Shown here: piece after piece, positions 1,978-57,180 of the stretch
Numbering within the stretch: the first letter of the stretch is position 1
Layout: the number at the start of each line of letters is the position of its first letter
From: an uncultured Bacillota bacterium
Lineage (GTDB): Bacteria; Bacillota; Clostridia; Peptostreptococcales; Anaerovoracaceae
DNA: 64,000 bases
Assembly (NCBI GenBank): GCA_927441425.1
Contig: CAKMKG010000032.1
Location: forward strand, 1-64,000
Reading direction: 5' to 3'
Program-made: the position numbers and the translations under genes
Notes under the pieces: generated by a model
Database searches by the model: none
What the model was told of the DNA's origin: nothing
What the model saw: the letters and a program-made list of their open reading frames with translations, nothing else

Positions 1978-3213
1978 CTACCATATTCTTTTCTGCAATG
2001 CAAACTGGTCAATGATCTCCGCAAGGAAGGCCTCATAGTTCTTACATACTTCCGGAGGGAGCTTGCTCAGCTCCTTCGTCAAGGTTTCTGCTGATACAGA
2101 GTGAGTGGGATTACAGCCGTCCGCCTGAAACATTGCATTGTAGATCTCACCGGAAAGTAGCAGAAGGTTCCTATAATGCTGAAGCCTTGCTGCTTCTGAT
2201 TTTTGTGGCAGCTTTCCCATTTCCAGTGATTTGGAGATGGAGGATCCATTTTGGAGATCCTTTCCGGAATATTGGCTTTCATAGCGATAACTGTTCAGTA
2301 GCTTTTCCGCCTTCTTTCGGTCACAGGAAAAATATTTATGAGGCTGCTGACAGTTGATCGAGGCCGTGATCTCGCGATATTTGGAAGGAGTGGAGCCATA
2401 CCATTTTTTAAAATGGGAGATGAGGTATTTCGTGCTGGCAAACCCTACCTCAAGAGCAATTTCGGAAATAGTTTTATCCGTACTGACCAGGAGCTTTTCC
2501 GCTGACTCGGAACGTACCGCGGAAAGCCATTGCTGGAAACTCAGACCTGTGGACTGCCGGATAAAATGGGAGAGGTAATAAGTACTGAGATATTCATTTT
2601 GCGCCAGATCGCTTAGGGTAATGTTCTCTGCATAGTGGCTGTATATAAATTCCTGAACACGGTGAATCCGTTCTGCATGGATGGCATTGATATGAAATTC
2701 CTGTGGGCAGCCGTAGAAAAAATGATCGCTTCCGTCGGGCAACCATCGGAATAGCTGAAAGCTGTCCAGTAGCAGGGCGACGAGACTGCTTAAATCCTCC
2801 TTGAGCCGGTCCGTATTCGCGTACTGGTTTTCGTTAAAGTGAAAGTATATATCGGCGAAAATGCGCCGGAGCAATTGGATGCTGCTGCCCTTCTGATTTG
2901 CGCAATCACATAAGAAGGTCGTATTTTTAATTGCAGGAAAGGTTGTTTTAAGATGATCCAGATCAACATATAAGGTCAGCACACAGTTGCTCTGACTGAG
3001 ACCGGTGATGCAGTGGAGATCGGGGGGATTGAATATATGAATATCACCGTCGTTTAAAATCTGGGATTGATATGCCTCCCGTATCTCGAGAGTTCCTTCC
3101 AACACCATAATAAATTCGATGGCCTGGTGCACATGAAGGGGTATGCTTTCCACGGTGGAAAGAAAAGCGTCCACCGGCAGTCCGTTTTTAAAGTGAATGG
3201 CTTTCTTCAGCAT
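1978..3213 (-). CDS. AraC-family transcriptional regulator with cupin sensor and C-terminal extension; candidate regulator of the methylamine operon
   Basis: 411 residues, ATG at 3213 behind GAGGAGATAGG. Residues 10-80 look like an AraC-type cupin sensor (histidine-rich HVHQ, then GDIHIFNPPD). Residues about 185-283 carry the two helix-turn-helix units, ending with the hallmark EIALEVGFAS and FKKWYGSTPSKYR. Unusually, about 128 residues follow the DNA-binding domain; AraC regulators normally end there. This tail is charged and helical with no motif I recognise. The gene diverges from the methylamine methyltransferase operon across about 230 bases, which suggests it controls that operon in response to a methylated amine. 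That role is inferred from position only. Confidence 0.87.
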   Translation of the reverse strand: MLKKAIHFKNGLPVDAFLSTVESIPLHVHQAIEFIMVLEGTLEIREAYQSQILNDGDIHIFNPPDLHCITGLSQSNCVLTLYVDLDHLKTTFPAIKNTTFLCDCANQKGSSIQLLRRIFADIYFHFNENQYANTDRLKEDLSSLVALLLDSFQLFRWLPDGSDHFFYGCPQEFHINAIHAERIHRVQEFIYSHYAENITLSDLAQNEYLSTYYLSHFIRQSTGLSFQQWLSAVRSESAEKLLVSTDKTISEIALEVGFASTKYLISHFKKWYGSTPSKYREITASINCQQPHKYFSCDRKKAEKLLNSYRYESQYSGKDLQNGSSISKSLEMGKLPQKSEAARLQHYRNLLLLSGEIYNAMFQADGCNPTHSVSAETLTKELSKLPPEVCKNYEAFLAEIIDQFALQKRIW

Positions 3214-3442: not shown

Positions 3443-4867
3443 ATGGCAGAATACTATACCAGAATGGGTGACGGTTTTGGCATTTATTTGTCGGAAGAGG
3501 AGATCAGAGCGGACATCCGGGAAGGCGTGAAAGATGCAGCAGATAGAGGAAAGATTCCCCCGCTTACTGAAGAGGAAATGGAACATTTGTACAAGATCAT
3601 TACGATGGAGGGTATCATTGTCGGCGTCAAACACGGTGATGAAGTGGTCTCCTCAACCGATCAGGGTGCAGACACCGTTGGCTGTGAAAGCGGGGTACCC
3701 ATCGACAGGGTAATCCAGGTCCAGATGCTGGAACGGGCATTCGGTATCGATTCCACCGACTATGGCTTCACCGATTATAACTTCAAAGCGGTAAAGCCCA
3801 TCGCGAACTACGAAGCGGCTTCAATGGAGAGAGCCCTGGAGAACAGTGTGATTCCGATTTTATATGGTGGAATGCCGAATCTGGGCTTCTATACGAAACC
3901 AGACGGCCCGGTGGACAATTGGGCAGAGCTGCTTCCCCAGGGGAAGGTCAAGGAGGCACTGGAAGCACAGGAAGCGGCGGTGGATTTGGCGGTTCATGAT
4001 ATGGTTTACGTCGCAGAGCAAATGTTTGAGGCCGGTGCGGACGGTATCAATCTCGATACCTGCGGCGCCGCAGGGGACGCAGATTTTTTGGCTGCTCTGA
4101 AGGCCTGTGAGGAGATCAGAAATAAATTTCCAACCATGGGGGTGGAAATCGGAATGGCGGGAGAGTTCGTATTGGGCATGCACGGAAGACTGAAGTATGA
4201 TGATACGCGGATAGCCGGACTGTATCCTCACAAGCAGGTGAAACTTGCAGAGAAAGCCGGAGCAACCATTTTCGGTGCAGTGGTCAACACCAACACGAGC
4301 AGATCCTTCCCCTGGAATATTGCAAGAGTCTGTACCTTTATGAAGGAATGCGTCAAGGAGGCGGGAAAGATCGCGGTACATACCAATGTGGGCATGGGTG
4401 TCGGAGGAATTCCCATGTGTGAATCCATTCCTCACGATGTGGTTTCCAGAGCAGACAAGGCGTTAATCGAGATTTGCAAAATTGATGGTTTGTAGATAGG
4501 CGAAGGAGATGTGATGGGCACAGAAATCACCCACACGGTATCCGCTTGCATGGGCGGCATGAAGACAGCCGGAGATCTGGTTCTCAGAATGCAGCTTGCG
4601 CACGGTATGAGAATCCGTGAAGCAAAGGAGTACGTCGCCGAAAAACTGGGTGTATCGGTATTCGAATTGAGCGATCCATCCGTCATGACGGAAATCCGGC
4701 AGACCTTTGGCTTGGGCGTTCAGGAGCCAAACCTGGGGGATATCACCGGCATGGCGGCCAAATTCAGAATATCCGAAAAAATGGGAATTACGATCAATTC
4801 CGTTGAAAACTTTAAAAGGAAGGCCGGATTGAAAAAGGAAGGTGCAATACATGAAGAAACCCTATGA
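3443..4867 (+). CDS. mtbB: Dimethylamine:corrinoid methyltransferase MtbB, pyrrolysine-containing (in-frame TAG at 4493-4495)
   Basis: This is one 474-residue protein read through an amber codon. ATG at 3443 is preceded by AGGAGGGG; the first in-frame stop is TAG at codon 351 (4493-4495), and the frame stays open to TGA at 4865-4867. From memory of the archaeal family, the opening EYYTRMGDGFGIYL, the middle GADGINLDTCGAAGDAD and MAGEFVLGMHGRLKYD, and the segment around the amber, IDGL-X-IGEGD, align with Methanosarcina MtbB, whose pyrrolysine is residue 356 of 467. The part after TAG (KTAGDLVLRMQ, MRIREAKEYVAEKL) is the conserved MtbB C-terminus. The enzyme would transfer a methyl group from dimethylamine to a corrinoid protein, with pyrrolysine binding the substrate. 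It overlaps mttB by 17 bases. Conventional annotation would split it into a 350-residue and a 118-residue ORF. Confidence 0.93.
4493..4495 (+). other. In-frame amber codon of mtbB, predicted pyrrolysine 351
   Basis: TAG lies between GAT GGT TTG and ATA GGC GAA, in the same frame as both halves of the MtbB homologue and at the family's pyrrolysine site. AAGGAG at 4503-4508, followed by GTG (4511) and ATG (4514), resembles a ribosome site and could in principle allow re-initiation of the C-terminal piece. Confidence 0.9.
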
Positions 4868-6311
4868 AGACTGTACCATCGGATATTCCATTCTGGAAAA
4901 GAAGGATATGGATGCGATCCATGAATCCACGCTGAAGCTCATGGGAGAATTCGGAGTGAGGGTTTACGGAGAACAGGCCCATGAAATTTACAGTGGGGCA
5001 GGCTGCAATGTTGATCAAGAAACCAATATGGTAACATTTCCGAGAAATTTGATCAATGACTGCATCGAGTCAGCCCCTGCGGAATACACGTTATATGCAA
5101 GAAACCCGGAGAAGAATGTGGAACTGGGAGGAAAGAAGGTTACCTTTACAAACTTCGGGACCGGAGTATATCTTCTTGATCCTGTCACAGGGGAACGGCG
5201 CAGCACGACAAAAGAGGATCTCTGTAAGATCGCGCGGTTCATCGATGCTGTAGATGAGGTGGACTGCATTACCATACCGGTAGCAGCGACAGATGTTCCG
5301 GAGGAAATCAAAGAGCTCCATGAAGCGGAAGCGATCTTCCTAAATACTTCTAAGCATTTTGGTCATGATACGGATGGCGGAGAGAATACAAGGCGGTTCA
5401 TCAGAATGGCTGCAGCAGTGGCGGGGGGCATGGATCAGCTGAGGGAGCGACCGATTGTTTCACTGGGTGCCTGCCCAAACAGTCCCCTTGAATTACACGA
5501 GGCTGCCACAGAGCAAATCATCGAAGCAGCCAAGGCCGGAATCCCTATGGATGTGCTTTCCATGGGACTATGCGGAGGAACAACGCCGGTTACGCTGGCA
5601 GGAACGATCCTGACTACCAACTGTGAAATTCTTTCGGGGATCATCCTTGGGCAGCTGGTCAGAAAAGGTACGCCGATGATGTATGGAAGCTCAACCAGCA
5701 TTATGGATCTCAAACTGACCACATCGCCGGTGGGCGCGCCGGAGCATGCGATGTTTGGTGCGGCAATCGGGCAGATGGGTCATTATTACGGAATCCCGAC
5801 CGATGTTGGCGGGACTTAGGGAGACAGCAAGCGCATTGATGCTCAGATCGGTCATGAGAAAACCATGACGGCAATGCTTCCCGCCTTAACGGGGAGCAAT
5901 ATGATCTACGGAATGGGCATGCTGGAAATGGGAATGACCATGAGCTATGGGCAGTTGCTGGTCGATGCAGAAATCGTTCGAATGATTCGAAGGATTATGC
6001 AGGGGATTGCGGTGGATCACTCAACACTTGCACTGGATGTGATAACAGCGGTAGGACCCGGTGGAACCTATCTGGGGCAGAGACATACTATGCAGTTCAT
6101 GCGGAAAGAATCTTCACAGGCGAAATTGATCGATCGAAAAATGTATGATGCCTGGGCCAGGTCCGGGAAGAAGGATATGGCGGAACGCGCCAATGAGGAA
6201 GCGTTGAAAATATTGGAGAATCATAAACCCATTCCTTTACCGGAGGCTGCGGGAAAGGAAATCAGAGCAATCATTGAAGAGGCGGAATACGAAATAGGAG
6301 TTAGGAAATAG
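4851..6311 (+). CDS. mttB: Trimethylamine:corrinoid methyltransferase MttB, pyrrolysine-containing (in-frame TAG at 5817-5819)
   Basis: 486 residues read through an amber codon. I chose ATG at 4851 (GGAAGG upstream) over an upstream GTG at 4842. The N-terminal 322 residues end in YYGIPTDVGGT, then TAG (codon 323), then GDSKRIDAQIGHEKTMTAML in the same frame. Archaeal MttB reads VAGT-Pyl-SDAK followed by GHEKTMTTLLPAL, so the amber sits exactly at the pyrrolysine site. The C-terminal part (ALTGSNMIYGMGMLEMGMT, VGPGGTYLGQ) is conserved. The enzyme demethylates trimethylamine to dimethylamine by methylating a corrinoid protein. The gene's final stop is also TAG (6309-6311); the next in-frame stop is TGA at 6348, so read-through there would add 13 residues. 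Confidence 0.94.
5817..5819 (+). other. In-frame amber codon of mttB, predicted pyrrolysine 323
   Basis: TAG stands between GGG ACT and GGA GAC AGC AAG. The frame is open on both sides and both sides match MttB. Pyrrolysine forms the substrate-binding site in this family, so the residue is expected to be essential. Confidence 0.92.
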
Positions 6312-6382
6312 TTTTTCTTTGTCTGGAAATGCATGAGAGGAAAAGCTTGAAGCTGAAGTTTTAAGAGAGAAAGGACACGTGT

Positions 6383-7042
6383 ATGAAGGAATTATTGAAT
6401 AAGATGAGAGTTTCTGTTTTAGAAGGGGAGGAGGAGGATGCGGTTGCCTTGGCAAAGCAGGCGCTGGCTGAAAAGCTGGACTTGAAAACTGTTATGGATG
6501 AAGGTTTTGTTTTAGGCATCCGGGAAGCGGGGCAGCTATATGCGGAAGGAGAATACTATTTGCCGGATCTAGTATGCTCGGCTGATGCGATGAAATCCGC
6601 ACTGGCTATTCTGGATGAAGCTCTGAAAAAGCCGGCAAGCGGATTTACATCTAAAGGTAAAATTGTCATGACCACGGTACAGGGAGATGTACATGACATC
6701 GGAAAAATCATCGTCGGTGCTATGCTAACCGCTGTTGGCTACGAGATTTATGATTTGGGATCCGATGTTCCAAACGTAGTAGTTTTAGAGGCCATTTATA
6801 AAATCAAACCTGATGTGGTTGGTCTTTCCGCTTTGCTGACGACGACAATGGTGGAACAGAAAAATATCATCGAAGATCTGAAGGTAGCCGGAACAAGAAA
6901 TGGTGTGAAGGTAATCGTCGGAGGCGCGCCTGTGACTCATGAGTGGGCGAATAAAATCGGTGCTGACGGCTATTCCGACGATGCAATCAGTGCGGTGGAG
7001 CTGGTCAACCGTCTGCTCCTTCGAGAGGGGATGAAGGCATGA
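6383..7042 (+). CDS. Methylamine corrinoid protein (MttC/MtbC-like)
   Basis: 219 residues. An N-terminal four-helix cap domain (about 1-85) is followed by a Rossmann-like B12-binding domain. The cobalt-ligand motif is G101-D-V-H104-D-I-G107, with SALLTTTM and VGGAPVTHEWA downstream as in other corrinoid proteins of methyltransferase systems. It accepts the methyl group from MtbB or MttB and passes it to an acceptor methyltransferase. It is the only corrinoid protein in the cluster, so it probably serves several of the four methyltransferases. It starts about 70 bases after mttB, and its stop overlaps the next start as ATGA. MttC and MtbC cannot be told apart from sequence alone. Confidence 0.93.
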   Translation: MKELLNKMRVSVLEGEEEDAVALAKQALAEKLDLKTVMDEGFVLGIREAGQLYAEGEYYLPDLVCSADAMKSALAILDEALKKPASGFTSKGKIVMTTVQGDVHDIGKIIVGAMLTAVGYEIYDLGSDVPNVVVLEAIYKIKPDVVGLSALLTTTMVEQKNIIEDLKVAGTRNGVKVIVGGAPVTHEWANKIGADGYSDDAISAVELVNRLLLREGMKA

Positions 7043-8433
7043 AATTAAGAACACAAGTGCTGTCACAAGAAGAAGTGGAACTGGTACATAAACGAACATT
7101 GGAGCTTTTAGAGCATGTCGGCGTGTGCATAAAAAGCGAACGAGCGCTTAAGGTGCTGGCTGAGAGTGGTGCAGAGGTGGATTTCAATACGCAGATCGTT
7201 AAGATTTCAGAGACCCTTCTGTGGAAATGTCTGAACACAGCCCCCAAAAGCTATGTGCTGGGTGCCAGAAACCCAAAATTTGATTTTCCTATGCCTGCGA
7301 CAAAGGTCGGTCATATTCTGGATGGGATCACCACTGGGATTATTGATATCGAAACGGGAGAAAGGAGGCCGTCTACAAAAGAGGACGTGTTTCAAACAGG
7401 CAGGGTCTTTCAGCAGATGGATATGGGCGCAGTGGCCTGGTCGGGCTGTTCGGCTTTGGATATGCCTCCCGAAACCCATAGCCTTCACGAGTTCGCAGCG
7501 ATTCTTCAGGGAACCTCAAAGCATATTCAGTTTGAATTGCGACATGGGGGAGAATCAAAATACGCCATTGAAATACTAAAGGCTGTCCTGGGATCGGAGG
7601 AAGAGGTGATCAATCGTAAGATTGCTTCTGTGCTCTACTGTCCTATTTCGCCGCTAACCCACGACGACAGCATGCTGGATGCTTATTTGGAGCTTGCGGA
7701 ATATGATGTTCCAGTGAACATCTATCCGTGTCCCATCGTAGGCTTAACCTCGCCGGCCAGCCTTTTCTCCACCGTCTGTTTGATTAATGCGGAGGTATTG
7801 TCCGGACTGGTCATCTACCAGCTGGTGAAACCGGGTCTGCCACTCATGTACGGTTCCTGTTCCGGCACGGCAGATCCAAGAACGGGAGACTACGTTGACA
7901 AGGAAGAAAGCGTTCTGATCAGCATGGCGTCCAGAGAAATGGCAAAATTCTATCATTTGCCGTCGGTCCTCTCCGGTGGAGGCTCTTCGGAAACCGTACC
8001 GCAATATATGATCGAACCTGAGCTCATTGACGGAATCGGGACGATGGATGACGGTATGACGACGGATCTGGCAGGGCTGGTGATGCAGAATGAGTTTTGC
8101 AACAGAAATATTAGAATTGCACAGGGGATTCGGGTAGATGAGGAAACAGACCTGATCGCTGACATCATTAAGCAAGGACCAGGCGGAGGGTTTCTGGGCA
8201 GCAAATCAACGAGGAAAATGTTTCGGGACAACAGTGAAATCTATATCTCAAAACACTTCCCAGACTGCTTCCGACATACTGCAAATGAGCATGCTGACAT
8301 GAGGCTGCACGCAATTGAAATCGTAAAATCAATATTAGACGGACCGGTTGAGGATGAATTGCCTCAGTCGGTACAATTAAGAATTGACGAAATTTGTAAA
8401 AATGCAGATAGAGCGCTTGGAAAAAAAGCATGA
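7039..8433 (+). CDS. MttB-family methyltransferase without pyrrolysine (MtgB-like), paralogue 1
   Basis: 464 residues, uninterrupted, translationally coupled to the corrinoid gene by a 4-base overlap. It has the MttB-family layout (RTLELLEHVGV, GERRPSTKEDV, SPLTHDDSMLDAYLELAEY, GPGGGFLGSKSTRKMF). The pyrrolysine position is replaced: where MttB has AGT-Pyl-SDAK this protein has SGGGSSETV. Pyrrolysine-free members include the glycine betaine:corrinoid methyltransferase of Desulfitobacterium (MtgB) and enzymes for proline betaine, carnitine or butyrobetaine. The substrate is probably a quaternary amine, but which one is unknown. It precedes a permease gene by 252 bases. Confidence 0.9.
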   Translation: MKLRTQVLSQEEVELVHKRTLELLEHVGVCIKSERALKVLAESGAEVDFNTQIVKISETLLWKCLNTAPKSYVLGARNPKFDFPMPATKVGHILDGITTGIIDIETGERRPSTKEDVFQTGRVFQQMDMGAVAWSGCSALDMPPETHSLHEFAAILQGTSKHIQFELRHGGESKYAIEILKAVLGSEEEVINRKIASVLYCPISPLTHDDSMLDAYLELAEYDVPVNIYPCPIVGLTSPASLFSTVCLINAEVLSGLVIYQLVKPGLPLMYGSCSGTADPRTGDYVDKEESVLISMASREMAKFYHLPSVLSGGGSSETVPQYMIEPELIDGIGTMDDGMTTDLAGLVMQNEFCNRNIRIAQGIRVDEETDLIADIIKQGPGGGFLGSKSTRKMFRDNSEIYISKHFPDCFRHTANEHADMRLHAIEIVKSILDGPVEDELPQSVQLRIDEICKNADRALGKKA

Positions 8434-8685: not shown

Positions 8686-10374
8686 ATGGAAAATAATAAG
8701 AGCGGAGCTATGGTGGATACGGCGCATTTAGGATTAAAAAAGAGAAAATTGAGTGTAGCCACCATAGTTTTTATGATTTACTGCTTATGCTCGGGCGGTG
8801 CGTTCGGTATAGAAGAAATGGTGTCCTGGGCCGGACCCGGTTTAACGTTGATCATGCTGATCGTTCTTCCATTTGTATGGGGCATCCCTCTCGGACTTGT
8901 TGCCTCTGAGCTGGGTTCGGCAAGGCCCCAGGAGGGAGGATATTATAAATGGGTCCAGGAGGCACTGGGAGAGTTCTGGGGTTTTCAAGCCGGCTGGTGG
9001 AGGACTGTATCGGTATACATAGACAATACGCTATACGTGATCCTTGCTGCCGGTTACATTTCCATGGTATGGGATGTGGGACCCGTCGGATTATTTTTAA
9101 TCAAAGCGGCAATTATCTTTATCTTTACCTATATCAATCTAAGAGGGCTCGGCGATATCGGTCTTGCCAGCACGATCTTTTCCATCCTGGTAATGGTCGC
9201 GTTTGCCATGGTCACTGTCGTCGGCTTTCTGAACTGGAACCAAAGCCCTTTTCTTCCCATAACGGCCCACGGCGAGATCATGGGCTTTGCAGGTCTGGGC
9301 TTTAGTGACTGGATATACTATATTGGTACGGGGATCGCTATCGGCATGTGGATGTATTCCGGATATGAGTCCATGTCCACCGTTGCAGGAGAGGTCGAGA
9401 ACCCGCAGGTGATCCCGAAAGCTACCCTTATTTCTGTGCCACTGATCATGGCTACCTATATTCTCCCCACTTTAGCCGGAGTTGCATCCATAGGCCAGTG
9501 GGACAGCTGGAGTACCGTGGGGGTTGATTCCGTGGGATATATCACGGTGCTTTCCCAGTTCCTGCATCCGGGATTTGCCATGTTCATGGTGGTCATCGCG
9601 GTAATTTCCAACATATCGGTCTACAATACCTACATCGCATCCGGCTCCAGAGGCTTTTTCTGCCTGGCAGAGGACTATCTTGCGCCACCGGTGCTGGTAA
9701 AGGTAGATAAAAAGCACGGCATCCCATACATTTCCGTTCTAAGCGTGGCAATCGTAAATCTGGTTTTATGCAACTTCGCATTCACCGTTGTCGTCGTAAT
9801 TGATGTATTTCTATTCGTATCCGCATACGTGCTGATTTATATTTCCGCAATGATATTGAGAAAGAAGATCCCGGATGAAGAAAGACCGTTCAAAATTCCT
9901 GGCGGTTACGGATTCTTATGCCTTGTTTGCATCATGCCTATTTTGATCGCATTTTTAGGCTTTTTCATCAACGGCACCGACTATTTTATCGGAGGGATGA
10001 TCGGAATCGTTTCCGGGCCGATTTTCTACTTCATCTGGAAACGAAAATACGGCGGATTGGCAAAAAAAAGTGAGACGGAGTTTCCCGTCAATCAACATAC
10101 CGGTCTTGCCATCGGTGATTTATACCGCATGGTGATCATATTCTTCTGGTTGGGATTCATGGGCGTCATTGCATCTATATTTCTACCCTGGTTTGAAGGC
10201 AGTTGGGGAAATGACTGGTATTATGAAGTCTATGGAGTGGAGGGGATTTTTGATACCTTCCTCTTTATGATCAAGATCGGAACAGTGATCGCCTTTCTCA
10301 TAGGGATCGTCATGTACTTTGCGGCGAAGAAGCTGGAGCCGAAGCAGGAAAAGAAAGAGAGGATTGCTGTATGA
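8686..10374 (+). CDS. APC-superfamily amino acid/amine permease
   Basis: 562 residues, ATG at 8686 with GGAAAGGGTAGGA upstream. About 12 hydrophobic segments follow a short charged N-terminus. Family features visible include GGAFGIEEMVSWAGPG in helix 1, the ASELGSARPQEGGYYKWV loop, and later GSRGFFCLAEDYLAPP. It belongs to the amino acid-polyamine-organocation superfamily. Within a methylamine/betaine operon it most likely imports the methylated amine used by the flanking MttB-type enzymes. Its stop overlaps the start of the next MttB paralogue (ATGATGATG at 10371), so the two are coupled and may share one substrate. The substrate itself is inferred, not shown. Confidence 0.88.
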   Translation: MENNKSGAMVDTAHLGLKKRKLSVATIVFMIYCLCSGGAFGIEEMVSWAGPGLTLIMLIVLPFVWGIPLGLVASELGSARPQEGGYYKWVQEALGEFWGFQAGWWRTVSVYIDNTLYVILAAGYISMVWDVGPVGLFLIKAAIIFIFTYINLRGLGDIGLASTIFSILVMVAFAMVTVVGFLNWNQSPFLPITAHGEIMGFAGLGFSDWIYYIGTGIAIGMWMYSGYESMSTVAGEVENPQVIPKATLISVPLIMATYILPTLAGVASIGQWDSWSTVGVDSVGYITVLSQFLHPGFAMFMVVIAVISNISVYNTYIASGSRGFFCLAEDYLAPPVLVKVDKKHGIPYISVLSVAIVNLVLCNFAFTVVVVIDVFLFVSAYVLIYISAMILRKKIPDEERPFKIPGGYGFLCLVCIMPILIAFLGFFINGTDYFIGGMIGIVSGPIFYFIWKRKYGGLAKKSETEFPVNQHTGLAIGDLYRMVIIFFWLGFMGVIASIFLPWFEGSWGNDWYYEVYGVEGIFDTFLFMIKIGTVIAFLIGIVMYFAAKKLEPKQEKKERIAV

Positions 10375-11807
10375 TGATGCAGACCCAGGTATTGAGCCCA
10401 GAAGAGAAGAAAATGATCCATGAGGAGTCGATCCGCATTCTGGAGGAAGTTGGAATCAAATTCCCCAGTGAGCGTGCCCTTGACATTCTGGAAAAGGGTG
10501 GAGCAGTAATAGACCGGGAGAAGCAGGTGGCTTATCTATCGAGACAGATGGTGGATGCGGCTTTGAAGGTTGCCCCGAAGGAAATCACCCTGGCAGCCAG
10601 AAACGAGGCCTATGATTTCAGAATGCCATCCACTTTTACCGGTTACCATATGGACGGCTGCGGAATGAATATGGTAGACCTGGAAACAGGTGAGAGACGG
10701 TCGTCGGTTCTTCAGGATCTCGCAGATTCCGCAAGGGTTTTTGATGAGATGGAGCTGGGATATATCTATTGGCCTCCCGTGTCGCCCCTGGATGTGCCCG
10801 GCCAGGCCAGAAGCATTGCGGCAACGGCTACGGGATTGATCAACACAAGTAAGCATATTCAGGATGAAATGAAAACGGCAAAGGAGATCCCTTATGTGAT
10901 GGAATTGCTCAAAGCTGTTTTGGGCGATGATAAGCTGAGGGTCGGCAGAGACATCTACTCGGTGGTATACTGCACGGTTTCGCCTCTATGCCATGACACT
11001 GATATGCTGGAGGCTAATCTTGAGTTATGTAAATATAAGGTACCTGTTGTCGCTTTGCCAATGCCGGCAGCCGCGACGACGGGGCCGGCAAGCCTGTATT
11101 CCAACGTAGCGCTGTCCAATGCGGAGACGCTGTCGGTTCTGGTTATGTTTGAACTGACGGAGCCCGGAGTGCCGATCATTTACGCTTCCTCTCTCGGCAT
11201 CGCCAATCCCCGGAACGGGCTGTTCCAGTTTGGTATGCCGGAAACGATCATTCAATTGGTGGCAATCATTGAGATGGGAAAGTATTATGATCTTCCGACG
11301 ACCATAGCCGGCTGCGCAACGGACGCGAAAGGATACGGCGGGCAGGCGATGATGGAGAAGATGGCGACCAATCTGCCGCTTATCCTGGCGAAGCCGGATA
11401 CCCTCGTGGGTTTTGGTATGTATGAATGCAGCACGACCTTATCCTTGAGCCAGATCATCATCGATCATGAAGTAGCACGATATTGTAAAAGGCTTTGTGA
11501 AGGAATGAACATCGCACCGGAAACGGACTTCTTTGAAGATATTAAAAGTGTGGGACAGGGCGGACATTACCTGAAACAAAAAAGTACACGTGCTGCCGTC
11601 CGGTCAAAGGAGTTCTATCAGCAGGAGCTTTTAGATAAGGGCTCCTATGACGAATGGGTATCAATGGGAAGCAGGGACATGAACACCATTGCCAGAGAAA
11701 ATGCACTGCAGATTCTGGAAGCCGAACAGAAGGCTCCGCTGTCGAAAGATGTGGAAAAGGTGCTCAAAGAGATTGTGGAGGAAGCCAGCATCAAACTGGC
11801 GGAGTAG
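10371..11807 (+). CDS. MttB-family methyltransferase without pyrrolysine (MtgB-like), paralogue 2
   Basis: 478 residues. Three successive ATG codons (10371, 10374, 10377) could start it; the first overlaps the permease stop. Layout and motifs match MttB (GERRSSVLQDL, SPLCHDTDMLEANLELCKY, GQGGHYLKQKSTR). At the pyrrolysine site it reads AGCATDAK against AGT-Pyl-SDAK in MttB, so an ordinary residue replaces pyrrolysine while the surrounding loop is kept. It is closer to the uninterrupted paralogue at 7039 than to mttB. A quaternary amine such as a betaine is the likely substrate. It is the last gene of the operon and is followed by a hairpin terminator. Confidence 0.9.
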   Translation: MMMQTQVLSPEEKKMIHEESIRILEEVGIKFPSERALDILEKGGAVIDREKQVAYLSRQMVDAALKVAPKEITLAARNEAYDFRMPSTFTGYHMDGCGMNMVDLETGERRSSVLQDLADSARVFDEMELGYIYWPPVSPLDVPGQARSIAATATGLINTSKHIQDEMKTAKEIPYVMELLKAVLGDDKLRVGRDIYSVVYCTVSPLCHDTDMLEANLELCKYKVPVVALPMPAAATTGPASLYSNVALSNAETLSVLVMFELTEPGVPIIYASSLGIANPRNGLFQFGMPETIIQLVAIIEMGKYYDLPTTIAGCATDAKGYGGQAMMEKMATNLPLILAKPDTLVGFGMYECSTTLSLSQIIIDHEVARYCKRLCEGMNIAPETDFFEDIKSVGQGGHYLKQKSTRAAVRSKEFYQQELLDKGSYDEWVSMGSRDMNTIARENALQILEAEQKAPLSKDVEKVLKEIVEEASIKLAE

Positions 11808-48693: not shown

Positions 48694-49608
48694 CTAATAA
48701 GCAAAAACCATCACGCCTATTTTAACAGCAACCTCTTTCGACAGCATAAACTGATTTGTTGTGCTGTCATCGTAATACCACAAGGCACCCTTGGTAGGAT
48801 CTACTCCATTGAACGCATCCTTTGCCGCATTGACGGAATCGGCATTGGCGGGCTTGTTAATCCAACCGTTAACAACAGGAGTAAACTGATAGTAGCCATT
48901 GATATTCTGATAAACGACACCTTTTACTGAGTCAGTAAATAAACCGCTCTGCACTCTGTTCATGACCACAGCACCGACAGCAACCTTGGCTTGATAAGGC
49001 TCCCCTTGTGCTTCGGCCATGATCAGTCTTGAAAGCACGTCTAGATCCTCCGCGGAGTATGCCGCAGTTTGCGCAGGTTTCGATACAGGAGCGGTCGCCG
49101 GTGAGTCGGCAACGGGGGCAACTACAGGGGTGCTTACTGGTGCAGGTGGAGCCGGAGCCGGAGTTACAGAAGGCGTACTTGGTTCGGCCTTCCCCTGTGT
49201 GTTTGCCGGAATGCTTCCTGATCCGGGTACCGGCACTGCCAGTCTTTGTCCAATATCCAGACTGTCGCTGTAGATGTTATTTGCTCTGCTTATCTCTGAG
49301 AGCGGCATTTTGTACTTCTGAGCAATCAGGTATAAGGAATCTCCCTTTTGAACGGTATATGTATCACCCGGGACCTTTAGTACCTTCCCAATATTCAATG
49401 AGGTGGTTTTCAGACTGTTTGCATTCATTAGATTTTCAACAGTAGTATGGAAAACCCGGCTTATCTTGAATAAGGAGTCTCCTCCGACTGCAGTGTAGGA
49501 CGCTGTTCCTGGAGTATATGCGTATACGTTGGCGGTAATGAATACCGACAGACCCAGCGTGAGACCTGCGGATAACAGAATTGTTTTCACTTTCTTCGAT
49601 CTGCTCAT
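48694..49608 (-). CDS. LysM-SleB-type cell wall hydrolase
   Basis: 304 residues, ATG at 49608 with AGGAGG upstream. A signal peptide (about 1-30) is followed by two LysM repeats (GDSLFKISRVFHTTVENLMNAN; QKGDSLYLIAQKYKMPLSEI), a Pro/Ala/Ser-rich linker, and a C-terminal hydrolase_2 (SleB/CwlJ) domain with LSRLIMAEAQGEPYQAKVAVG (catalytic Glu in MAEAQGE), VVMNRV, GYYQFTPV and ALWYYDD. Such proteins bind peptidoglycan and cleave it, in germination or growth. A c-di-AMP riboswitch lies in its leader, linking expression to osmotic and wall homeostasis. Confidence 0.92.
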   Translation of the reverse strand: MSRSKKVKTILLSAGLTLGLSVFITANVYAYTPGTASYTAVGGDSLFKISRVFHTTVENLMNANSLKTTSLNIGKVLKVPGDTYTVQKGDSLYLIAQKYKMPLSEISRANNIYSDSLDIGQRLAVPVPGSGSIPANTQGKAEPSTPSVTPAPAPPAPVSTPVVAPVADSPATAPVSKPAQTAAYSAEDLDVLSRLIMAEAQGEPYQAKVAVGAVVMNRVQSGLFTDSVKGVVYQNINGYYQFTPVVNGWINKPANADSVNAAKDAFNGVDPTKGALWYYDDSTTNQFMLSKEVAVKIGVMVFAY

Positions 49609-49621
49609 TTTTTATCCTCCT

Positions 49622-49740
49622 ATTGCCTCCCGGGTTAGTTGACGGATTAGGGTAGAGGTACCCCGCTATAAAAACTTCACCCCAGTGAATATCCCCGGTA
49701 CTCCATGTGAAGATTCGGCATAGTTCAATTTTAATCGAAA
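49622..49740 (-). ncRNA. c-di-AMP (ydaO/yuaA) riboswitch
   Basis: On the reverse strand the leader contains GCCGAATC (49719-49712), a stretch of G-rich pairing segments, and the conserved 3' half ACCCTAATCCGTCAACTAAC followed by CCGGGAGGC. These match the ydaO consensus (CCGAATCCGTCAGCTAACCTCG..GGC) as I recall it. The element ends 13 bases before the start codon. These riboswitches usually turn genes off when c-di-AMP is high and often precede cell wall hydrolases and ion transporters. The 5' boundary is approximate. Confidence 0.87.
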
Positions 49741-55182: not shown

Positions 55183-56370
55183 ATGAAAAAGACAGTAAGA
55201 GACATTGATACAAAGGGCAAAAAAGTGATCGTGCGCTGTGATTTCAACGTTCCTCAGGACAAAGAGGGCAAAATCACGGACGATATCCGTATCACAAGTG
55301 CCCTGCCTACAATCAGCTATCTGATTGAACAAGGGGCTAAGGTGATTCTCATGTCTCATCTGGGAAGACCTGACGGCGAAGCAAACATGAAGTACACCTT
55401 AAAACCTGTTGCAGATAGACTTTCCGAGCTGCTTGGAAAACGAGTTTTATTCATCAGTGCGCCGGAAGTCGTAAATGAAGAAGTATCCCAGGCCGCAGCC
55501 GGACTGAGCGACGGTGGCGTGATGCTTCTTGAAAATGTACGATTCCGCAAAGAAGAAACAAAGAACGGTGCGGCTTTCTCTAAGGAGCTTGCCGACCTTG
55601 CCGAAATATTTGTAAATGATGCCTTCGGAACAGCACACAGAGCACATTCTTCAACAGCGGGTGTTGCAGATTATCTGCCTGCGGTGTCCGGCTTCCTCAT
55701 CGAGAAGGAAGTGAAGTTCCTCGGCAATGCTGTGGAAGCTCCGGAAAGACCTTTTGTAGCCATCATGGGCGGTGCCAAGGTTGCGGATAAGATCCTGGTG
55801 ATCGAAAATCTGTTGACCAAGGTGGATACGCTGATCATCGGTGGAGGCATGGCATTTACATTTCTGAAAGCGATGGGTTATGAAATCGGAAAATCCATTC
55901 TCGATGCTGAAAATATTGGTCTGGCAGCTGATTTAATGAAGAAGGCTGAGGCTAAGGGTGTTAAGCTGGTACTTCCGACAGACGTGATTGCAGCGATGGA
56001 ATTCAGCAATGACGTGGAAATCCGTGAATTCGATTCCAATCGCATTCCCCAGGAATGGATGGGTCTTGATATTGGCGAAAAATCCATCGCGCTTTTCAGG
56101 GATGAACTGAAAAATGCAAAAACAGTGATTTGGAATGGACCGGTGGGAGCATTTGAAATGTCGAATTTTGCGAAGGGAACCATTGAAGTGGCAAAAGCCC
56201 TGGCAGAAATTGATGCAGTCACAATCATTGGCGGTGGAGATTCTGCTGCTGCGGTGGAACAGTTCGGACTTGCCGATAAAATGACACATATCTCTACCGG
56301 AGGAGGGGCATCTCTGGAATTCCTGGAAGGGAAGGAACTGCCCGGCATCGCGGTATTAGAAGACAAATAG
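55183..56370 (+). CDS. pgk: Phosphoglycerate kinase
   Basis: 395 residues, ATG at 55183, 4 bases after gap. Family motifs: [12 protein letters not shown] near the N-terminus, [29 protein letters not shown], and the nucleotide site [13 protein letters not shown] with [14 protein letters not shown]. It makes ATP from 1,3-bisphosphoglycerate. It ends in TAG. Confidence 0.97.
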
Positions 56371-56433
56371 ACAACTTGCAGTAGAAATCAACAAAATCAT
56401 TTTGTTGATTTCATAAACTTTGGAGGTAGCAAA

Positions 56434-57180
56434 ATGAGAAAACCCTTTATCATGGGTAACTGGAAAATGTTCAAGACAACCAAGGAAGCAGTCGCTTTTG
56501 CGGAGGAATTTAAAAAAATATTTCAGTCTTCCGATGTACAGGCCGGCGTCAGTGCACCGTTTACGCAGCTATCCGCATTGAAAGAAGCCTTTAAGGGCAC
56601 CGACATCAAGGTTGGCGCGCAGAATATGCATTTTGCGGAGAATGGTGCTTATACCGGTGAAATTTCAGCAGAAATGCTCAATGAATTGGAAATAGAATAC
56701 TGTATCATCGGACATTCGGAACGGCGCCAGTATTTCAATGAAACCGATGAAACGGTCAACAAAAAGCTCCATACCGCTTTCAAACACAACATCACACCCA
56801 TTCTATGCGTTGGAGAGGTGTTGGAAGAAAGAGATGCAGGGAAGGAATTCGATGTTGTTAAAAGGCAGACTGTCGCAGCACTTTCCAACCTGACGGCAGA
56901 GCAGGTTTCTGTATTGGTCATTGCATATGAACCGGTTTGGGCAATCGGTACCGGCAGAAACGCGACTCCGGAACAGGCAAATGAAATGTGTGGATATATC
57001 AGAAAGGTCATTGAGGACCTTTACGGCGATGAAGTTTCAGAAAATGTTATCATCCAGTACGGTGGCAGCGTAAAGCCCGCGAATGCGTCCGAACTGATGA
57101 ATATGGAGGAAATCGACGGAGCCCTTGTAGGCGGTGCTAGTCTGGTGCCTGCGGACTTTATCGAAATCGTTAATTTTTAG
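56434..57180 (+). CDS. tpiA: Triosephosphate isomerase
   Basis: 248 residues, ATG at 56434 with TGGAGG upstream. Active-site residues are present: Lys in GNWKMFKT, His in IIGHSERR, and Glu in the loop-6 motif AYEPVWAIGTG; the phosphate grip GGSVKPAN and GALVGGASL follow. It interconverts the triose phosphates. It ends in TAG, 11 bases before eno. Confidence 0.97.
   Translation: MRKPFIMGNWKMFKTTKEAVAFAEEFKKIFQSSDVQAGVSAPFTQLSALKEAFKGTDIKVGAQNMHFAENGAYTGEISAEMLNELEIEYCIIGHSERRQYFNETDETVNKKLHTAFKHNITPILCVGEVLEERDAGKEFDVVKRQTVAALSNLTAEQVSVLVIAYEPVWAIGTGRNATPEQANEMCGYIRKVIEDLYGDEVSENVIIQYGGSVKPANASELMNMEEIDGALVGGASLVPADFIEIVNF

What the first reader, a model, noticed from the sequence alone, without database searches (positions are those of the whole stretch)
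3443..4867. Dimethylamine methyltransferase with an in-frame amber codon at the pyrrolysine site
Seen: a 350-codon frame ends in TAG and continues, without shift, for 123 more codons that complete the MtbB C-terminus. Known: archaeal MtbB has pyrrolysine at this site, coded by TAG. Inferred: this bacterium inserts pyrrolysine here, so the two ORFs are one protein.
Basis: partly seen in the sequence, partly recalled or inferred. Interest (0 to 1): 0.93.

Follow-up and report, generated by a model that had tools for sequence, protein, structure and literature searches.

The report
Pyrrolysine gene with conserved RNA hairpin
This bacterium has a dimethylamine-degrading enzyme gene with a stop codon in its middle that it likely reads as the rare 22nd amino acid pyrrolysine, and just after that codon lies an RNA hairpin, preserved in relatives by matched base changes, that may help the cell do so.

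Summary
The part after the TAG is under purifying selection. Of 398 genomes sampled in the phylum, 17 have mtbB; all 34 of their genes carry one TAG, and the 16 other genomes all have pylSc. The next gene, mttB, has a second pyrrolysine TAG. So this is a genuine member of a known kind.

The surprise lies outside the finding. TAG is an ordinary stop here (60 of 305 sampled ORFs). Bacterial mtbB mRNA has a hairpin at nt 70-95, counted from the U of UAG, whose three wobble-wobble pairs covary (ranks 1, 3 and 34 of 95,824 gene-wide; about 32 inferred compensatory changes). It extends the hairpin of Rfam PYLIS_2. Passages of two reviews deny such an element, one for mtbB by name. mttB shows none. 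Whether it promotes pyrrolysine insertion is inferred and untested.

The parts
3443..4867 (+). mtbB, dimethylamine:corrinoid methyltransferase, 474 residues when TAG is read through
   Evidence: TIGR02368 481.5 bits over cut-off, Pfam Dimeth_Pyl 599.9 bits
4493..4495 (+). in-frame TAG, codon 351, predicted pyrrolysine
   Evidence: sequence; TAG in 38 of 39 aligned MtbB genes
4493..4592 (+). match to Rfam PYLIS_2 (RF02509)
   Evidence: 41.7 bits, gathering score 36
4562..4587 (+). RNA hairpin inside the coding sequence, nt 70-95 counted from the U of UAG; in this copy the stem can form from 4564 to 4585 with one C/C mismatch
   Evidence: covariation and synonymous-site tests on mtbB genes of the phylum
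4851..6311 (+). mttB, trimethylamine methyltransferase; overlaps the end of mtbB by 17 nt; ends in TAG
   Evidence: TIGR02369 650.4 bits over cut-off 525 when TAG is read through
5817..5819 (+). in-frame TAG of mttB (codon 323), second predicted pyrrolysine
   Evidence: the 34 TAG-mttB genes that were aligned share this TAG column; PYLIS_3 match 58.5 bits
6309..6311 (+). TAG used as the terminator of mttB; next in-frame stop TGA after 12 codons
6383..7042 (+). methyltransferase cognate corrinoid protein, probable methyl acceptor
   Evidence: Pfam B12-binding and B12-binding_2; TIGR02370 192.4 bits, under its cut-off of 215.3
7039..8433 (+). MttB-superfamily protein without TAG, substrate unknown
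   Evidence: Pfam MTTB; TIGR02369 323.8 bits, under cut-off 525
8686..10374 (+). amino-acid/amine permease of the APC family
   Evidence: Pfam AA_permease_2
10371..11807 (+). second MttB-superfamily protein without internal TAG, substrate unknown
   Evidence: Pfam MTTB; TIGR02369 368.9 bits, under cut-off
1978..3213 (-). divergent AraC-type regulator with cupin domain, probable operon regulator
   Evidence: Pfam HTH_18, Cupin_2

Best explanation
The two ORFs are one gene, a bacterial mtbB, whose in-frame TAG codon 351 is very likely read as pyrrolysine by the pyl machinery that the same genome encodes, giving a predicted 474-residue dimethylamine:corrinoid methyltransferase. Shown: frame, homology on both sides of the TAG, purifying selection after it, a complete set of pylT, pylSn, pylSc, pylB, pylC and pylD genes, and co-occurrence of TAG-mtbB with pylSc. 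Inferred: tRNA-Pyl(CUA) charged by PylSn/PylSc competes with release factor at this UAG; pyrrolysine would bind and activate dimethylamine in a TIM-barrel active site; the methyl group would go to a corrinoid protein such as the one encoded at 6383-7042. TAG is also a common terminator here, so discrimination is needed. Shown: the mtbB mRNA carries a hairpin at nt 70-95 (U of UAG = 1) with the signature of selection for base pairing. Inferred: it raises pyrrolysine insertion over termination, or couples read-through to the expression of the downstream genes.
Against: No expression, peptide or growth data. The pyl cluster lies on another contig of a 90% complete assembly (a binning error is possible; three same-genus genomes also have pylSc). 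The corrinoid protein misses the curated cut-offs for named methylamine corrinoid proteins. Pyrrolysine insertion without a cis-element works in E. coli (PMC8211752, PMC3639795, passages). The hairpin begins 67 nt beyond the UAG, outside a ribosome decoding it (footprint recalled). One MtbB that has lost the TAG (L017) keeps most of the stem. No such hairpin was found in mttB.
Confidence: 0.93

Rival explanations
1. Pseudogene or sequencing error: mtbB was broken by a nonsense change and only a 350-residue fragment is made.
For: TAG is a regular stop in this genome, 60 of 305 sampled ORFs.
Against: The TAG stands in one column in all 67 TAG genes of the pooled set; purifying selection after the TAG; three copies with one internal TAG each in this genome.
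Confidence: 0.01
2. Read-through by a near-cognate tRNA inserts a standard residue (for example Gln or Lys) rather than pyrrolysine.
For: In-frame stops with conserved downstream parts occur in other bacterial genes (PMC7918605, search listing with start of abstract only). Two database MtbB proteins have Gln at the site (P0045, P0123), possibly TAG called as Gln by a gene caller.
Against: A complete pyl gene set with tRNA-Pyl(CUA) is present; TAG-mtbB goes with pylSc in 16 of 16 tested genomes besides this one.
Confidence: 0.04
3. The hairpin is real but acts on mRNA, not on decoding: when ribosomes stop at the UAG for lack of pyrrolysine it folds and sets mRNA decay, pausing or expression of the downstream genes.
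For: The hairpin lies beyond a ribosome decoding the UAG (footprint recalled). mttB overlaps mtbB by 17 nt, so translation is probably coupled. L017, without a UAG, keeps most of the stem.
Against: No direct evidence. In archaeal mtmB, replacing the PYLIS lowered full-length product and raised the UAG-truncated product, as reported in PMC2933860 (passage).
Confidence: 0.35
4. The covariation marks a DNA-level palindrome (operator) or shared codon habits of related genes, not an RNA element.
For: Sequences are related; strict non-redundancy weakens the signal (75% set of 26 genes: ranks 2, 43 and 3322 of 94,472).
Against: U-G pairs are common in the stem (5, 9 and 5 of 67 at the three wobble pairs), which a DNA palindrome does not favour; gene-wide ranking shares the same relatedness; mean z -2.36 for stability against synonymous recodings; 34 mttB genes from the same set of genomes show nothing comparable near their TAG.
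Confidence: 0.07

Closest known systems
Methanosarcina MtbB (dimethylamine methyltransferase with in-frame amber codons; Paul et al. 2000, seen only in reference lists)
   Same: Same family model (TIGR02368 also rings in the control genome of Methanosarcina acetivorans), in-frame TAG, same expected reaction.
   Different: Here in a bacterium with split pylSn/pylSc and TAG as about 20% of sampled terminators; no MtmB match in the assembly. No archaeal sequence was aligned directly.
Bacterial pyrrolysine users: Acetohalobium arabaticum, Desulfitobacterium, Bilophila, marine Deltaproteobacteria (PMC7593587, PMC8318568, PMC3941956, passages)
   Same: pylSn/pylSc split, pyl clusters that may be interrupted by other genes, TAG-mttB; a TAG dimethylamine methyltransferase is also reported for the Deltaproteobacteria.
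   Different: PMC3941956 (2014) called mtbB almost exclusive to Methanosarcinales; here it is in 17 of 398 sampled genomes of the phylum, 8 of them with more than one copy.
Rfam PYLIS_2 (RF02509), predicted pyrrolysine insertion sequence of mtbB
   Same: Window matches it above the gathering score; its terminal hairpin (nt 73-92 by my count from the printed structure line) lies inside the hairpin found here.
   Different: In the bacteria the position left unpaired in Rfam (78-87) is mostly C-G, the stem reaches down to 70-95 in most genes, and pairing is supported by covariation.
mtmB PYLIS and bacterial SECIS
   Same: Proposed or proven cis-acting hairpin after a recoded stop codon.
   Different: The mtmB PYLIS was reported to show only limited covariance (PMC2933860, passage) and the mtbB structure not to resemble it (PMC3639795, section 17); bacterial SECIS sits immediately after UGA (PMC8211752, passage).

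Membership tests
MtbB, dimethylamine:corrinoid methyltransferase (TIGR02368) | match over the curated cut-off across the whole protein | tested here: met
   481.5 bits, cut-off 369.1, residues 2-460
MtbB, dimethylamine:corrinoid methyltransferase (TIGR02368) | in-frame TAG at the pyrrolysine site | tested here: met
   codon 351; TAG column shared by 38 of 39 aligned genes
MtbB, dimethylamine:corrinoid methyltransferase (TIGR02368) | cognate corrinoid protein MtbC nearby | tested here: inconclusive
   corrinoid protein at 6383-7042, but NF041607 187.6 bits under cut-off 350 and TIGR02370 192.4 under 215.3
MtbB, dimethylamine:corrinoid methyltransferase (TIGR02368) | dimethylamine demethylation activity | not testable with these tools
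   needs an enzyme assay
Pyrrolysine-decoding system | pylB, pylC, pylD, pylSc and pylSn over curated cut-offs | tested here: met
Pyrrolysine-decoding system | amber-suppressor tRNA-Pyl | tested here: met
   ARAGORN tRNA-Pyl (cta) at L006 13225-13296
Pyrrolysine-decoding system | pyrrolysine present at residue 351 | not testable with these tools
   needs mass spectrometry
PYLIS_2 (RF02509) | covariance-model score over the gathering threshold | tested here: met
   41.7 bits against 36
PYLIS_2 (RF02509) | base-paired hairpin conserved by covariation | tested here: met
   the other pairs of the Rfam structure were not tested apart
PYLIS_2 (RF02509) | effect on UAG decoding | not testable with these tools
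   needs a read-through reporter
MttB with pyrrolysine (TIGR02369), gene 4851-6311 | score over cut-off and TAG at site | tested here: met
   650.4 bits over 525; TAG in the column shared by the 34 TAG genes aligned
MttB with pyrrolysine (TIGR02369), genes 7039-8433 and 10371-11807 | score over cut-off and TAG at site | tested here: not met
   323.8 and 368.9 bits, no internal TAG; they are MttB-superfamily only

The most novel reading that the evidence does not exclude
Bacterial mtbB carries a true pyrrolysine insertion element: an mRNA hairpin at nt 70-95 from the UAG, written into the wobble positions of the code, that tips the contest between tRNA-Pyl and release factor towards pyrrolysine in cells where UAG still ends about a fifth of the genes. 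Pyrrolysine decoding in these bacteria would then be programmed gene by gene, with mtbB using a cis-element and mttB another solution, against the reviewed view that no mRNA context is involved.
Probability: 0.4. Interest if true: 0.82.

Novelty: new member of a known kind. Interest (0 to 1): 0.6.

Why it matters
Gene callers stop at the TAG, so this enzyme is mostly recorded as a fragment: in a protein search with the TAG-free MtbB of G055, 118 of the 120 relatives listed (of 1478) were 334-370 residues long, and a search with the part after the site found only 5 proteins among 261 candidates (that search needs shared five-letter words). That hides dimethylamine and trimethylamine use in the annotation of anaerobic bacteria. 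The hairpin matters more. Whether pyrrolysine needs an mRNA signal has long been argued, and the review passages seen here say that nothing like the PYLIS was seen in mtbB, or that no cis element is needed. Nested compensatory changes at synonymous sites in 67 genes say that something at the RNA level is selected, and they name the bases to change in a test.

Tried and rejected
PYLIS in mttB: the window's mttB matches Rfam PYLIS_3 at 58.5 bits, but 4 of the model's 8 pairs are marked as broken in it. In 31 non-redundant TAG-mttB genes synonymous constraint is not stronger near the TAG (17 near against 115 far columns, p = 0.34), and in 34 genes the best pair 3-15 codons apart downstream of the TAG ranks 183 of 99,885. 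I reject an RNA element there on this sample.

TAG avoidance: rejected; 60 of 305 non-pyrrolysine ORFs end in TAG. A +4-base signal was not evident: terminal TAGs are followed by A 21, G 21, C 11, T 7, and the six pyrrolysine TAGs by A or G.

Other new pyrrolysine genes: 13 TAG-ended ORFs in the 423.5 kb sample run on for 40 or more codons. Six are the known mtbB/mttB genes. The other seven were looked at by eye: four look like two neighbouring genes in one frame (pgk-tpiA, confirmed, and those in L051, L053 and L054, not searched), the rest non-coding or antisense.

MtmB: no PF05369 match in this assembly. mtbB in the plasmid, phage and viral collections: none found. Solved MtbB structure: no sequence match at E up to 1. 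MtmB is not among the 50 rows shown by Foldseek or VIA-align.

Results against the hairpin: with 75% non-redundancy (26 genes) the 78-87 pair falls to rank 3322 of 94,472. In the 27-gene replication set pair 75-90 is standard in only 19 of 27, codon +20 is GGC in only 11 of 27, codon -1 is TTA rather than TTG in 22 of 27, and several columns far from the TAG also score high. Pairs 73-92 and 74-91 are standard in only 33 and 37 of 67. In one search two of five measures do not exceed the shuffles (pairs changed on both sides, 243 of 500 as high; further pair types, 122 of 500), and these shuffles do not correct for relatedness. The window's own copy lacks pairs 70-95 and 71-94 and has C/C at 74-91; its stability z is -1.73. 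A consensus fold of 38 genes gave only five weak pairs. Serine columns were dropped from the synonymous tests, because AGY/TCN inertia inflated them; they were kept. Four TAG-mtbB genes seen are not among the 67: three for which no locus was returned and one partial gene (L134).

Full report
OBSERVATION. Window 3443-4867 reads as 350 codons, TAG (4493-4495), 123 more codons in the same frame and TGA. Read through, the protein matches NCBIfam TIGR02368 over residues 2-460 with 481.5 bits (cut-off 369.1) and Pfam Dimeth_Pyl with 599.9 bits. A long open run after a TAG is not by itself rare (4 of 60 other TAG-ended ORFs have 100 or more codons). Selection settles it: against L007, a 90% identical gene of an Eubacteriales MAG, dN/dS is 0.041 before and 0.098 after the TAG, and the TAG is kept.

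MACHINERY. PylSc lies at G000:C23 in the window's own assembly. The surrounding 19.5 kb (L006) hold, in order, a divergent PocR/AraC regulator, corrinoid protein, mttB with TAG, mtbB with TAG, RACo-like reductive activator, corrinoid protein, pylSc, pylD, an MtaA/MtbA-like methylcobamide transferase (under its cut-offs), a 241-residue protein without family, tRNA-Pyl with CUA anticodon, pylB, a CobW GTPase, pylC and pylSn. The five pyl proteins are over their curated cut-offs. No pyl gene was seen in the window operon, so it would depend on this cluster in trans.

OPERON IN THE WINDOW. A divergent AraC regulator (1978-3213, minus) faces mtbB, mttB (4851-6311, overlapping mtbB by 17 nt), a corrinoid protein, two MttB-superfamily proteins without TAG and an APC permease. 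mttB has its own TAG at codon 323 and also ends in TAG, with TGA 12 codons later, so the same codon is used twice in one gene, presumably with different meanings. The genome has three mtbB and three TAG-mttB copies, each with one internal TAG, five further MttB-superfamily genes without TAG, and no MtmB match.

HOW GENERAL. pylSc over cut-off: 4 of 9 genomes of the genus, 0 of 28 others of the family, 1 of 24 others of the order. In 398 genomes drawn from the phylum, 17 have mtbB, 34 genes, 34 with one TAG. The 16 of these besides the window's genome all have pylSc; two same-genus genomes without it, taken as controls, again lack it. In a further class sample (97 genomes) 33 of 34 matches have a TAG, six of them seen before, and the other is a fragment ending before the site. 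One exception was found in the 39-gene alignment: in G055, a genome of the same order with pylSc, one MtbB has TTG (Leu) at the site and also differs at four otherwise invariant positions. A search of 5.8 billion proteins with the region of that protein after the site found five proteins in all: itself, two with Gln, one with Glu and one that looks like a chimera; Gln may be a gene-caller artefact of TAG.

STOP OR PYRROLYSINE. TAG ends 60 of 305 sampled ORFs of at least 150 aa, the six pyrrolysine genes set aside (ORFs chosen mechanically, no gene caller). PMC3941956 (passages) says that bacteria deal with this by regulation rather than by codon avoidance. That left the question whether the mRNA helps.

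THE HAIRPIN. Positions are counted from the U of UAG as 1. A first scan for synonymous constraint in 33 mtbB genes had seven of its ten strongest columns, of 146, between codons -1 and +28 from the TAG. With a better statistic and 35, 24 or 17 non-redundant genes, the five strongest columns of 164, 145 and 141 were in each case those at -1, +2, +20, +26 and +28 codons (near-against-far p 0.0008, 0.0002, 0.001). In 27 newly fetched genes the region stood out again (p = 1.9e-5, 23 non-redundant); GGA at +26 was kept in 27 of 27 and CTG at +28 in 24 of 27, while GGC at +2 and +20 was kept in 18 and 11 of 27. The stretch GCCGGAGATCTGGT is identical in 42 of 67 genes. Among 95,824 pairs of third codon positions over the whole gene, the pair 72-93 ranks 1, 75-90 ranks 3 and 78-87 ranks 34 for standard pairing beyond shuffling; in 37 genes under 85% identity the ranks are 2, 8 and 244 of 95,128, in 26 under 75% they are 2, 43 and 3322 of 94,472. 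The three pairs are nested in one stem, and their summed score is 19.1; the best triple not overlapping it scores 9.7 of 13,466 triples. In 31 genes with Ala at codon +30, where every change at 93 is synonymous, 27 keep a standard 72-93 pair, as C-G, G-C, U-A, A-U or U-G (counted from the list). The core pairs 77-88, 78-87 and 79-86 are standard in 66, 65 and 67 of 67. The given 11-pair structure has a covariation score of 0.216 against 0.084 in shuffles (0 of 500 as high); the best slid version has 0.109; two counting measures do not stand out. Parsimony on a protein tree counts 14, 14 and 4 double changes between standard pairs at the three wobble pairs, beside 12, 13 and 7 single changes and 2, 3 and 0 other double ones. 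The 26-nt stem is matched in stability by at most 5% of 200 synonymous recodings in 48 of 67 genes (mean z -2.36); along 20 of the genes a coarser scan of 101 windows, every four codons and so not hitting the exact stem, had its lowest mean at -0.98, in the window overlapping the stem. A covariance model built from the 67 finds it only in mtbB: in seven genomes the 11 known mtbB genes hit at E below 1e-8, ten of them by construction and the eleventh being the TTG gene; nothing else was below 0.06, and the two pyl-minus genomes had nothing better than 0.158 (150 candidates scored per genome).

WHAT IS KNOWN OF IT. The upper stem is the terminal hairpin of Rfam PYLIS_2, and PMC3639795 (passages and section 17 read) predicted some structure for mtbB and none for mttB. 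PMC2933860 (passages) says nothing similar to PYLIS could be seen in mtbB; [quoted passage not shown] coli and that no specific mRNA context drives recoding. In the listings of searches I saw no paper reporting covariation or synonymous constraint in bacterial mtbB; most subscription papers are not held, and only listings and passages were read.

VERDICT. The finding is right and of a known kind. The hairpin is supported as an RNA-level signal by sequence alone; its link to pyrrolysine insertion is inference. For the link: position after the UAG, the core stem in nearly all TAG-mtbB aligned, and the reported drop of full-length mtmB product on PYLIS replacement (PMC2933860, passage). Against: its distance from the UAG, its absence from mttB, and its survival in the TTG gene.

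Noticed in passing
L041:6934-8334 (G055:C38; match L017): A full-length MtbB with TTG (Leu) at the pyrrolysine site in a genome that has pylSc and three TAG-mtbB genes; four other positions invariant in the 38 TAG genes are changed (D73E, D154N, G278S, V320M in window numbering), and no corrinoid protein was among the eight neighbouring ORFs scanned. ARAGORN found no tRNA-Pyl in the 20 kb around this genome's pylSc. A possible pyrrolysine-free MtbB.
   Followed up: partly
window 55183-57180: pgk ends in TAG and is in frame, without a stop in between, with tpiA, which also ends in TAG; pyrrolysine read-through would make a Pgk-TpiA fusion. Probably chance.
   Followed up: partly
window 6309-6350: mttB ends in TAG although it carries a TAG for pyrrolysine; 4 of the 8 TAG-mttB genes in five related genomes do so, so a 12-residue tail might appear when pyrrolysine is abundant.
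   Followed up: partly
L006:12492-13217: 241-residue protein without Pfam or NCBIfam match between the MtaA/MtbA-like gene and tRNA-Pyl in the pyl cluster.
   Followed up: no
G008:C1:2826122-2827528 (L033); G130:C1:461025-462440 (L114): Proteins over the TIGR02369 cut-off (542.4 and 623.3 bits) with no TAG; L033 lies next to a TAG-mttB in a same-genus genome.
   Followed up: no
window 49609-49730 (minus): c-di-AMP riboswitch (65.2 bits) directly upstream of a LysM/cell-wall hydrolase gene at 48694-49608.
   Followed up: no
P0045, P0122, P0123: Rare database MtbB proteins with Gln or Glu at the site; P0122 (Glu, 283 residues) is hard to explain as a mis-called TAG.
   Followed up: no
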